A stretch of 64,000 nucleotides of DNA from Mycobacterium decipiens (GTDB taxonomy: Bacteria; Actinomycetota; Actinomycetes; Mycobacteriales; Mycobacteriaceae): contig NZ_OY970459.1 in NCBI RefSeq assembly GCF_963853665.1, positions 2,232,001-2,296,000 of the forward strand, in the 5' to 3' direction. Within the stretch, counting starts at the first letter, position 1. Each line of letters starts with the position of its first letter. The position numbers were made by a program, and so were the translations under genes. Below the pieces are notes generated by a model. That model was not told the DNA's origin. It saw only the letters and a program-made list of their open reading frames with translations, and searched no databases. Shown here piece after piece: positions 25,157 to 41,379 of this stretch.

Positions 25157-26602
25157 TTAGCTGGATACGCGAACTGGTGAAGCTGCGTACCGGCCCGCCG
25201 CCACGCGGCTAAATATTGAGCTGATGACCTCTCCATAACGGGTCGCAGACTCCCGGGCAATGGGATTGTTCGGGAAGGAAATCATCAGCGACACCTCGTC
25301 GAAGAGACGGATTACCGACATGTACAAGTATGCCGGGCTTCGGCCGTCATTGTAGGCCGTTGCATTCGCTCCTTTTAATGCGGTAGCGACGACCGCCGAA
25401 AGCGGGGGTAGACCTGCATCCATGTAGTTCATCATGGTGAACTGCGGCCCGTACCTCTTCAGCCAAGGCGCCAATTCCAGCACCCGATCGTAGGGCACAT
25501 TCGCGAGGTCTATATTCTCGTCGAATGACGCTTGAGTGGCACGGGCGGTCTCTTCGAAAGAGCTCGGGTCAATGGGAACGGTAAACGGCACGATTCCGGT
25601 GAACCAACCCATCGTCATGTACTCAGCGGGTGATTTGCGCCTATCGATTGGTGTAAGTCCGTAGTACGTTTCCTGGCCGGTCAATTCATGGTGCGCCAGT
25701 GCTGTGCAGGCGAACAGGCCACCGCTAAATCGGGCACCCGCTGAGATGCAGGCGGATTCGAAATGGGCCGTTTGGTCTGGATCCATCAGAGGCACGACCA
25801 TGATGTCGCCGCCGCACGGAATCGATTGATCACCCAGCGGTAACGGGAAGTCCGGCATGCCTCCACCGTTGTTCTCGGCGAACTCAATCCATTTGCGGAC
25901 CTCGGGGGAATCCAGGGTCATGGTTTCCGCGTACGCCCGCTCCTGCGTGCAGAATTCCTCATGACTGGCCGTGGGTGGCAGGGCAACGGGCGGTTTGCCC
26001 GCCACCAGCGCTTGATAGTTCGTCAAAACCTCTACGTACAGACCGGTAATCAACGCCGGGTCGCAGTGGAGATGATCGACAAACGCAAAGAAGGCGAAAT
26101 GGTCCTCGCGCTGAATTAGGCCAAACTTGAAGCAATCCCACTCCAGTGGACTCGGAGTAGATAGGATCAGATCCCGCCATTCGGCCTGCGTCAACTCGCC
26201 ATACTGAACCGGGACGAACTGGATGTCGCGGGGGTTGGCTATTTTGTGTCGGAGGATGGTCTGGGCGTCCTTGTACTCGAACCAACTGCGGTACGTTTCG
26301 TGGCGGCGAAGGTGCCCGTTAATGACGTGAGTCATGGCACGGATGTCGCACTTACCGGGTATGTCCCACGAGCCCATGACCACCCGTGAATAATCAAGCC
26401 CCCGATCCCCGAATTCGACATAGCCTCGCAAATGGCCGGCTTGCATGGAGCTGGGTGGCGCAGGCACTACCGGCGCTTGCCGAGCTTTCGCGAGAGACGA
26501 AGGTGTGGGCTGCCAGGTCACGACTGGGCCAGGACCAGGCTCCCAGTCATAAACCGTTCCGACGCCGAGACTGACGTCCGCCGAGCCCCCACCTATGATC
26601 AC
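25157..26602 (-). CDS. PapA-type acyltransferase (cassette 2)
   Basis: This 481-residue polyketide-associated acyltransferase of the PapA1/A3/A4 type transfers acyl chains from a PKS or acyl-CoA onto sugar hydroxyls. The catalytic HxxxD motif is in FVDHLHCDPALI (about residue 175). Conserved blocks CDIRAMTHVINGHLRRHETY, PSPLEWDCFKFGL, GARFSGGLFAC and WFTGIVPFTVP frame the tunnel. GTG 26602 is chosen because GGAGG lies directly upstream; upstream codons to 26677 would overlap the PKS leader spacing. It starts 58 nt after the stop of the upstream PKS. M. tuberculosis papA4 (Rv1528c) next to pks5 is only a short remnant, whereas this copy is full length. Confidence 0.9.
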   Translation of the reverse strand: MIIGGGSADVSLGVGTVYDWEPGPGPVVTWQPTPSSLAKARQAPVVPAPPSSMQAGHLRGYVEFGDRGLDYSRVVMGSWDIPGKCDIRAMTHVINGHLRRHETYRSWFEYKDAQTILRHKIANPRDIQFVPVQYGELTQAEWRDLILSTPSPLEWDCFKFGLIQREDHFAFFAFVDHLHCDPALITGLYVEVLTNYQALVAGKPPVALPPTASHEEFCTQERAYAETMTLDSPEVRKWIEFAENNGGGMPDFPLPLGDQSIPCGGDIMVVPLMDPDQTAHFESACISAGARFSGGLFACTALAHHELTGQETYYGLTPIDRRKSPAEYMTMGWFTGIVPFTVPIDPSSFEETARATQASFDENIDLANVPYDRVLELAPWLKRYGPQFTMMNYMDAGLPPLSAVVATALKGANATAYNDGRSPAYLYMSVIRLFDEVSLMISFPNNPIARESATRYGEVISSIFSRVAAGRYAASPVRVSS

Positions 26603-26660
26603 GGTCCCTCCTCGATTCCGGCCGCTGCGGGCGCCGTAGGCGCTTAGGTCCATTCCTACC

Positions 26661-41000: not shown

Positions 41001-41379
41001 CCACGAACACACCGGTCAGCGAGCCGGTCAAGGATTTCGGAGCCAGCCCGGCGTGCTCCACGGCCTCCCATGAGGTCTGCATAAGCAATCGGTGCTGTGG
41101 ATCGATCGCAATCGCTTCGTGCTCACTGATGCCGAAGAACTCGGGATCGAACCCCGCAACGTCGGCCAGGAACCCGCCCCAGCGCGACACCGATCGCCCG
41201 GGTATGCCCGGCTCGGGGTCGTAGTACTCATCCGCGTCCCACCGGTCGGCGGGAATCTCTGTGATCAGGTCGTCGCCGGTGCGCAATGCCTCCCACAACT
41301 TCTCTGGGGAATCGATGCCGTTGGGCAGCCGGCACGCCATGCCGATTACGGCAACGGGAGTGACGTGGGTCTGATCCAA
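35038..41379 (-). CDS. pks5: Pks5-type mycocerosic-acid-synthase-like polyketide synthase (cassette 1)
   Basis: This 2113-residue PKS has the same KS-AT-DH-ER-KR-ACP order as its neighbour: KS Cys in VDTACSSSLLAV, EAHGTGTPVGD, AT GHSLGEVAAA, DH DHQIHHVAALPGAAY, ER ATGGVGQAAIAIARATGAE, KR YIITGGLGGLGLFLAE and ACP YGLDSLGNLELR. All key residues are intact and there is no thioesterase. The start is TTG 41379 with a GAGGTG element about 8 nt upstream, giving DQTHVTPVAVIGMACRLPN as the N-terminus. The two synthases align end to end but are clearly different, so they may make different branched chains for different positions on the glycolipid. It heads the pks–papA–pks–papA run. Confidence 0.95.
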   Translation of the reverse strand: MDQTHVTPVAVIGMACRLPNGIDSPEKLWEALRTGDDLITEIPADRWDADEYYDPEPGIPGRSVSRWGGFLADVAGFDPEFFGISEHEAIAIDPQHRLLMQTSWEAVEHAGLAPKSLTGSLTGVFVGMCHDDYAFVTGAAGALEDAYGFTGTPLSMGSGRVSYAMGLRGPAMTVDTACSSSLLAVHLACRSLHERESNLALAGGCMIMLEPRIFASASAQGMLSPTGRCRTFDAAADGFVRSEGCAMVLLKRLPDALADGDRILAVLRGTATNQDGRTDNISTPSLKAQVVAYRTALATAGVDADTVGMVEAHGTGTPVGDPIEFAGLAQVYGNNGNRCALASAKSNLGHTEAAAGAVGIIKAILSLQHGAVPPMLHHTRLPEALAQIQTGLFVPQQITPWPRRDGAAPRRAAVSSYGMSGTNVHAILEQAPETGAQHDGADPFQPAARLFALSATSAEALRQSSRQLADWVQQHADSTAPSDLAYTLARRRAHRPVRTSLIATDNTELVERLREVGDSDTAIPAAVGQDDRGPVWVFSGQGSQWTAMGADLLATEPVFAATVAAAEPLIARESGFSVTRAMTGRKTVTGIDRVQPTLFAMQVALAATIKSYGVAPGAVIGHSLGEVAAAVVAGALSLEDGARVICRRSRLCTRIAGIGAMAAVELPAQQVRQELTSRGAKDVVIAVVTSPQSTVIGGAAQTIRDLIAAWEERDVLAREVAVDVASHTPQVDPILDELSHVLADISPRTPQVPYYSATLFDPRERPACDARYWVDNLRHAVRFSAAVRAALEDGHRVFGELSPHPLLTRAVEQTAASHDTPVAAVAAMRRDQPLPHGLIEFMANLHNAGAAVDFSVCYPGGKLVDAPLPAWTNRRLLHEPDTAGPCSGANTVAVHPLLGSHVQLMEEPERHAWTAEVGTAALPWLGDHQIHHVAALPGAAYCEMALAAARTVLGEQAEVRDIRFEQALLLDEKSPVGAVAAMQTAGRATFDVETFRQGDRVRRATAALCAVADLPDDTDRPPAQDIDDLLAAHPCRLEGTELREWFDARGVQFGSAFTGLVAAYISEGTIDAVLGEVGLPSAIRTQQAGYIVHPALLDACFQSVAAHPAVREVGGMRYGGLLLPLGVRRLRTYASTRNVRYCHTRVTECGTNVEADIDVMDEHGSVVLIVRGLQMGTGFSESTDQDRLLGERLLTIDWQRGELARIDAGTTGAWLLISVGPPVDEAADLFATGLADALRLHGAECVALSWPRHTGQSPRSARPAERLRAALGVRNLAGVVVLTGPPNRKPSGPCPGFLSSDYVQQLVRIAAELTDIPGCAPRLYVVTRDAQTVLADDCANLEQGGVRGLLRVIGAEHPHLHTTHIDVDQQTTAEQVGRQLLAGSEEDETAWRNDSLYIARLRPAPLGPEERRTTIVNHGRDGMRMQIRTVGDLQTMELVAFERVSPGPGQIEVAVTASSINFADVLGVFGRYRSVGPLPGLGSDFVGVVTAIGPDVTELKVGDRVGGLSANGCWATYVICAAHLAVKIPVGLTDAQAAAVTTASATAWYALQDLARIKAGDKVLIHSATGGVGQAAIAIARATGAEIFATAGSESRRETLRTMGIDHVYDSRNIDFAELIRRDTGNAGVDVVLNSLTGAAQRAGVDLLTFGGRFVEIGKRDIYGDTRLGLLPFRRNLAFFALDLWLMSITHPDSLRDLFGTVYRLTAEGSLPMPESTHYPLAEAATAIRVMSAAEHTGKLVLDIPQTGTSSVTMPREHVRVFRPDGAYIITGGLGGLGLFLAEQMASANGGAGAGRIVLNSRSAPNQRVLETIELIRTTGSDIAVVCGDIALADTAQRLVAAATATGLPLRGVLHGAAVVEDATLANITDELIERDWAPKVRGAWNLHQATAAAPLDWFCSFSSAAALLGSPGQGAYAAANSWLDAFTHWRRAHGRPASAIAWGAWAEIGRGAGLAESGDTAMITPNEGAYAFEALLRSTRTVSGYAPVVGSAWLTALAQRSRFAGAFQSTGTSRPKHSQFRAELEELPLAEWPKRFRRLIAEQVSMILRRTVDPDRPLSLYGLDSLGNLELRTRIETETGVRIHSTDVTTVRGLADHLCETLAAAENATATM

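What the first reader, a model, noticed from the sequence alone, without database searches (positions are those of the whole stretch)
25157..41379. Two complete pks–papA cassettes in tandem with identical 58-nt internal gaps
Each cassette is a KS-AT-DH-ER-KR-ACP synthase followed by a PapA acyltransferase, and in both the stop-to-start gap is exactly 58 nt (35037–34980 and 26660–26603). That points to duplication of a pks–papA unit, not only of pks5. All catalytic motifs are intact in the four proteins, yet the copies diverge throughout, so two acyl chains or two acylation sites are likely. Known work on M. canettii showed that recombination between two pks5 copies, losing the pap between them, gives the rough M. 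tuberculosis form. Here both PapA genes are full length, so this is the undamaged ancestral-type layout.
Basis: partly seen in the sequence, partly recalled or inferred. Interest (0 to 1): 0.8.

Follow-up and report, generated by a model that had tools for sequence, protein, structure and literature searches.

The report
Two old lipid-making cassettes, not twins
Next to each other in the genome of a close relative of the tuberculosis bacterium lie two intact enzyme pairs that probably build and attach branched fatty acids on a surface glycolipid; they look like twin copies but belong to two old, separate lines, so this is an informative version of a known locus rather than a new kind of system.

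Summary
The tandem pks-papA-pks-papA is real and intact. The genome matches M. decipiens by length (5,303,299 bp). Minus-strand order is pksU-papU-pksD-papD, inside a lipooligosaccharide (LOS)-type locus. Both PKSs are mycocerosic-acid-synthase-like with catalytic residues in place; both PapAs keep HxxxD; dN/dS is 0.15-0.23.

The reading is partly right. Equal 58-nt gaps do not mark a duplication: 50-66 nt is usual in each family (31 of 36 papD-type, 19 of 24 papU-type junctions), and equal lengths would coincide about 5% of the time. The copies are old (69% and 51% aa) and form separate ortholog groups. In KS-AT trees pksU and pksD have different nearest relatives, and U+D as one clade is rejected (AU p 0.015); ER-KR-ACP (0.23) and PapA (0.20) do not reject it.

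Nor does this look like the M. canettii layout. The canettii-named Pap is a papD ortholog (86%), and M. tuberculosis Pks5 looks like a chimera of pksD and a third type, pksE, found after papD in M. kubicae. M. marinum's Pap here is a papU ortholog. So "twin pks5" probably names different gene pairs in different species. A known kind of system; a useful evolutionary correction.

The parts
35038..41379 (-). pksU: MAS-like type I PKS (KS-AT-DH-ER-KR-ACP), 2113 aa, TTG start; clade U, with the pks5_1-type gene of the M. marinum group
34980..35037 (-). 58-nt junction pksU-papU, ends in AAGGAG before TTG
33522..34979 (-). papU: PapA acyltransferase, 485 aa, HLHVD at 172-176; same clade as the M. marinum-named protein P0135 (75% aa)
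32955..33521 (-). 567-nt spacer between the cassettes; room for a separate promoter, none recognised by the consensus scan
26661..32954 (-). pksD: MAS-like type I PKS, 2097 aa from GTG 32954 (ORF opens at TTG 32984); clade D, 82% aa to M. tuberculosis Pks5 (P0245)
26603..26660 (-). 58-nt junction pksD-papD, ends in GAGGAGGGACC before GTG
25157..26602 (-). papD: PapA acyltransferase, 481 aa, HLHCD at 177-181; 86% aa to the M. canettii-named P0002
23647..24990 (-). GT28/EryCIII-like glycosyltransferase directly after papD (place of Rv1526c, name recalled)
12903..14687 (+). fatty-acyl-AMP ligase, FadD25 by position (name recalled); likely starter activation for the PKSs
14713..18339 (-). MMPL transporter, MmpL12 by position (name recalled); likely LOS export
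20979..21722 (+). SfLAP/Sap-family membrane protein

Best explanation
This is the acyl-chain half of a LOS locus of M. decipiens. It holds two old, functionally intact cassettes, U (pksU-papU) and D (pksD-papD). Shown: gene content, intact catalytic residues, purifying selection, orthologs of each cassette in other slow growers, separate distributions of the two PapA types, and condensing halves that are not sister clades. Inferred: FadD25 loads a fatty acid onto each PKS; each PKS extends it iteratively with methylmalonyl units (AT motif VASH in both) and fully reduces it to a multimethyl-branched acid; the PapA behind it moves that chain onto a hydroxyl of the trehalose core; MmpL12 exports the product. 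The two cassettes probably supply different chains or different positions. The tandem was assembled from two already distinct lines of pks-papA cassette, with later exchange between processing domains in some species, not by one tandem duplication. The 58-nt gap is the normal junction length of both lines. The ancestor of these loci may have carried U, D and a third PKS, E, after papD; M. decipiens keeps U and D, and the M. canettii/M. tuberculosis line D and E.
For: Intact, constrained genes; dN/dS 0.145-0.233 against two genomes. Uninterrupted U-D tandem also in M. lacus, G098, M. asiaticum 1165133.8, M. spongiae and M. bourgelatii. Separate distributions: of 396 genomes, 15 pass for both PapA types, 43 for papD only, 10 for papU only. 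PapA clades U and D each supported at 100. KS-AT tree: U with X_G135/R_G006/R_G091 at 99, D with the own-genome second PKS (L037) and Dp at 96; AU against U+D p 0.015, whole PKS p 0.042. Junction lengths. D/E chimera sign in M. tuberculosis Pks5: KS-AT with D_lacus at 100, DH-linker with E types at 98, the order expected if upstream D and downstream E recombined. E lies between papD and the glycosyltransferase in M. camsae, G004, G228, M. kubicae and G399.
Against: PapA and the ER-KR-ACP half do not reject U+D sisterhood (p 0.20 and 0.23). PKS trees are quick trees with SH-aLRT only; the U and D groups were named after a first tree was seen, which weakens the AU p values. PKS and PapA trees do not agree everywhere: D_G060 has a D-type PapA but its PKS falls outside the D clade, Dp PKSs side with L037 while Dp PapAs side with D, and R_G006/R_G091 PKSs side with U while their PapAs do not. 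In plain identity M. tuberculosis Pks5 is nearer to E_kubicae than to pksD only around residues 976-1200 and near the C-terminus, and in ER-KR-ACP the E-containing group also holds D genes of M. spongiae and M. bourgelatii. No M. canettii locus could be read. LOS production by M. decipiens is not shown.
Confidence: 0.68

Rival explanations
1. A single ancient tandem duplication of one pks-papA unit produced U and D, and the KS-AT disagreement comes from later domain exchange with other MAS-like PKSs.
For: PapA p 0.20 and ER-KR-ACP p 0.23 do not reject U+D; both junctions cluster near 58 nt; exchange between twin PKSs occurs (M. marinum-group pks5 and pks5_1 agree at 1.00 in every 150-residue window over residues 1351-1950).
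Against: KS-AT p 0.015 and whole PKS p 0.042; PapA best tree does not join U and D; the PapA types occur apart in 53 of the 68 genomes that have either.
Confidence: 0.24
2. The locus is the M. canettii-type twin-pks5 arrangement itself, with the intervening pap equal to papU.
For: Published descriptions give two pks5 genes with an intervening pap in M. canettii (PMC10657438, PMC10906988, passages seen), which the window also shows superficially.
Against: The canettii-named Pap is 86% to papD and pairs with it in the tree; no canettii-named protein is among the 120 listed papU hits, though many of those are unnamed; M. tuberculosis Pks5 is 82% to pksD and 68% to pksU and shows no U segment in three domain trees.
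Confidence: 0.08

Closest known systems
M. marinum / M. kansasii-group LOS locus (pks5_1-papA4 ... pks5)
   Same: pksU-papU pair is orthologous: G237 papU equals the M. marinum-named P0135 over 471 columns. PapA4 (MMAR_2343) disruption abolishes LOS (PMC5706390, passages).
   Different: There mmpL12 and a fadD lie between papU and the D-like PKS and no papD follows in the stretch read (G237, G222, G161); the two PKSs of the M. marinum group share an identical ER-KR stretch, the window's do not.
M. canettii twin pks5 with intervening pap; M. tuberculosis pks5
   Same: papD ortholog (86%) and pksD ortholog (82%).
   Different: Two pks5 around one pap (PMC10657438, passages), apparently D and E around papD; the window has U and D, each with its own Pap, and no E.
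M. lacus, G098, M. asiaticum 1165133.8, M. spongiae, M. bourgelatii LOS loci
   Same: Uninterrupted pksU-papU-pksD-papD.
   Different: M. spongiae and M. bourgelatii add an inverted papD-pks unit; a fadD gene stands beside pksU in M. lacus, G098, M. spongiae and M. bourgelatii but not in the window.

Membership tests
MAS-like mycobacterial type I PKS (Pks5/Pks2/Mas) | KS-AT-DH-ER-KR-ACP in one protein with catalytic residues | tested here: met
   NF041183 4178.9 and 3608.5 bits against cut-off 2400
MAS-like mycobacterial type I PKS (Pks5/Pks2/Mas) | methylmalonyl-type AT motif (VASH; rule recalled) | tested here: met
   VASH in both
PapA acyltransferase | Condensation fold family with HxxxD | tested here: met
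   PF00668; HLHVD and HLHCD; solved PapA2 6aef matches papU at E 9.7e-171 and shows HLCVD there
LOS biosynthetic locus | two pks5-type genes with pap, fadD, mmpL12 and glycosyltransferases together | tested here: met
   description in PMC11361433 (passages)
LOS biosynthetic locus | LOS made by the strain | not testable with these tools
   no lipid data; the M. decipiens genome paper has no hit for LOS, glycolipid or morphology
M. canettii-type twin pks5 | intervening Pap orthologous to the Pap between the twin PKSs | tested here: not met
   the window's intervening Pap is papU, while the canettii-named Pap groups with papD; canettii gene order itself taken from papers, not read
tandem duplicate of one pks-papA unit | U and D sister to each other in PKS and PapA trees | tested here: inconclusive
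   KS-AT rejects (0.015), whole PKS 0.042, ER-KR-ACP 0.23, PapA 0.20

The most novel reading that the evidence does not exclude
Slow-growing mycobacteria descended from an ancestor with a three-PKS LOS array, U-papU, D-papD and E. 'Twin pks5' then arose separately by different losses: U+D in M. decipiens, M. lacus and the M. marinum group, D+E in the M. canettii/M. tuberculosis line. The rough-colony event of the M. tuberculosis ancestor was a D x E recombination, which the E-less M. decipiens locus cannot repeat.
Probability: 0.45. Interest if true: 0.55.

Novelty: new member of a known kind. Interest (0 to 1): 0.4.

Why it matters
M. decipiens is described as the closest non-tuberculous species to M. 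tuberculosis (PMC11237670, abstract and passages), and loss of LOS is held to be an early step towards the tubercle bacillus. If the twin pks5 genes of different species are different pairs, results for one species (M. marinum PapA4, M. canettii recombination) should not be carried over to another by name. It also makes a clear prediction about which PKS types recombined in the M. tuberculosis ancestor.

Tried and rejected
Equal gaps as evidence of duplication: rejected. Recent conversion between the window's two PKSs: none seen; within-genome U-D identity is no higher than between species, longest exact match 35 bp, direct repeats only 71-83%. Regulation by the sRNA B11 (6C), which represses M. 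marinum pks5 but not pks5_1 (PMC12395582, passages): the genome has the RNA, but pairing of its C-rich loop with the four leaders is no better than shuffles; a first try used the 3-kb locus instead of the RNA and was discarded. Promoter scan: 3 sites found against 2.7 expected. NCBIfam gave no family for either PapA. M. tuberculosis and M. canettii genomes were not met among the genomes searched: P0002 found nothing nearer than 86%, so canettii gene order rests on papers.

Papers: passages only of PMC10657438, PMC11361433, PMC12395582, PMC8093194, PMC5706390, PMC13354803, PMC11237670, PMC10906988, PMC6194230, PMC7261415; section 18 of PMC8356964. Boritsch et al. 2016 was not seen. I saw no statement of the U/D versus D/E distinction, but those primary figures, and Figure 4C of PMC8356964 coloured by orthology, may already show it.

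Rows dropped: D_bourg PapA (short) from the PapA tree; D_G060 left out of the D group in the PKS AU tests; U_G237 put on the D side in the ER-KR-ACP test; duplicates by sequence. D_bourg is the inverted copy. The PKS split in two ORFs at 4.46 Mb was left out of the trees.

Full report
What is there. The window is G000:C1:2232001-2296000 of a single 5,303,299-bp contig, the exact length given for M. decipiens ATCC TSD-117 (PMC11237670 Table 1). On the minus strand lie pksU (35038-41379), papU (33522-34979), pksD (26661-32954; the ORF opens at 32984) and papD (25157-26602). Each PKS has KS-AT-DH-ER-KR-ACP and each PapA a Condensation domain. The catalytic residues of KS, AT, DH, KR and ACP and the ER cofactor motif are in place in both PKSs, the AT motif is VASH in both, and the PapAs carry HLHVD and HLHCD. 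Around them stand an acyl-AMP ligase, an MMPL transporter, glycosyltransferases, sugar epimerases and a Sap-family protein: the make-up of a LOS locus.

The 58-nt gaps. Both are 58 nt. In other genomes papD-type junctions run from -10 to 145 nt with 31 of 36 at 50-66, and papU-type junctions from 15 to 83 with 19 of 24 at 50-66; 14 other junctions run from -13 to 95 (window junctions left out, rows not independent). M. lacus has 58 and 57, M. spongiae 52 and 60, G098 55 and 59. Drawing one length from each list gives equality in 5.4% of pairs. The gap sequences hardly align (19 of 500 shuffles reach the score). A junction of about 58 nt is thus a conserved trait of both cassette lines; the identity of the two numbers is coincidence.

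Age and constraint. PKS 69.3% and PapA 51.2% aa identity. U-D identity inside M. decipiens is no higher than between M. decipiens U and M. lacus D, so there is no sign of recent conversion. dN/dS of the four genes against M. lacus and G098 is 0.145-0.233: all four are maintained.

Orthologs. An uninterrupted U-D tandem is also found in M. lacus, G098 (unnamed, possibly M. shinjukuense), M. asiaticum 1165133.8, M. spongiae and M. bourgelatii. M. camsae has U-papU-D1-D2-papD-E; G004, G228 and M. kubicae have D1-D2-papD-E without U; M. riyadhense and M. vicinigordonae carry a large opposite-strand ORF between the cassettes; G237 (M. marinum group), M. pseudokansasii and M. basiliense have U-papU, then mmpL12 and fadD, then a D-like PKS without papD in the stretch read. 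Of 396 genomes 58 pass for papD (E <= 1e-190) and 25 for papU (E <= 1e-195): 15 both, 43 papD only, 10 papU only. Up to four candidates per genome were scored and some assemblies are drafts, so these are rough numbers.

Trees. PapA: U and D are each a clade at 100, not joined to each other in the best trees; holding them together costs 3.6 log units, p 0.20, so PapA alone does not decide. PKS: U and D are separate clades; holding them together costs 43.6 units, p 0.042. By region: KS-AT puts U with cassettes of three other genomes (99) and D with the genome's second PKS at 5.20 Mb and Dp (96); U+D is rejected at p 0.015. ER-KR-ACP draws U nearer to D (76, weak), and U+D is not rejected, p 0.23. 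Results that do not fit a strict unit: D_G060 and Dp have D-side PapAs but PKSs outside the D clade, and R_G006/R_G091 PKSs lie with U while their PapAs lie elsewhere. PKS trees are quick trees without bootstrap. I call the second PKS at 5.20 Mb Pks2-like from its setting beside two PapAs and a fadD; that label is recalled, not tested.

M. canettii and M. tuberculosis. The canettii-named Pap P0002 is 86% to papD and pairs with it. No canettii-named protein is among the 120 papU hits listed, many of which are unnamed. M. tuberculosis Pks5 (P0245) is 82% to pksD and 68% to pksU. It joins M. lacus pksD in KS-AT (100) and the E types in DH-linker (98). In ER-KR-ACP it lies in a group with the E types that also holds D genes of M. 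spongiae and M. bourgelatii (97). An upstream D recombining with a downstream E, with loss of the papD between, would give such a protein. Papers seen in passages say two pks5 genes recombined and the intermediate pap was lost (PMC10657438, PMC10906988). The window has no E: papD stands 166 nt from the glycosyltransferase gene. So the comparison with M. canettii in the finding mixes two different pairs.

How it works. Most likely FadD25 activates a fatty acid, each PKS extends it with methylmalonyl units, and the PapA behind it acylates trehalose before glycosylation and MmpL12 export. Disruption of M. marinum papA4, the papU ortholog, abolishes LOS (PMC5706390, passages). Whether U and D serve two chains or two positions is inference.

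Verdict. Observation confirmed; interpretation partly supported; a new member of a known kind.

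Noticed in passing
window 41723-44987: No fadD gene stands beside pksU as it does in M. lacus, M. spongiae, G098 and M. camsae; the best own match to the M. spongiae gene is the window's fadD25. Instead there is a minus-strand CoA-ligase-like gene and an amino-acid permease gene whose best match in 145 other genomes is 56% (G050).
   Followed up: partly
L042:581-4475: M. 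spongiae has two papD copies facing each other, identical over 1503 of 1503 bases: an inverted repeat of the end of the D cassette. M. bourgelatii has a similar inverted unit.
   Followed up: partly
L097 pksU-type PKS (11491-18081) and P0312: The two LOS PKSs of the M. marinum group agree at 1.00 in every 150-residue window over residues 1351-1950 (pksD numbering), which points to gene conversion.
   Followed up: partly
L048 / L132 (M. riyadhense, G058): The pksD-type ORF is short (1403 aa) beside a 2716-aa ORF on the other strand.
   Followed up: no
window 49345-49514 (+): M-box magnesium riboswitch, 151.7 bits, upstream of the ileS-type gene at 50303.
   Followed up: no
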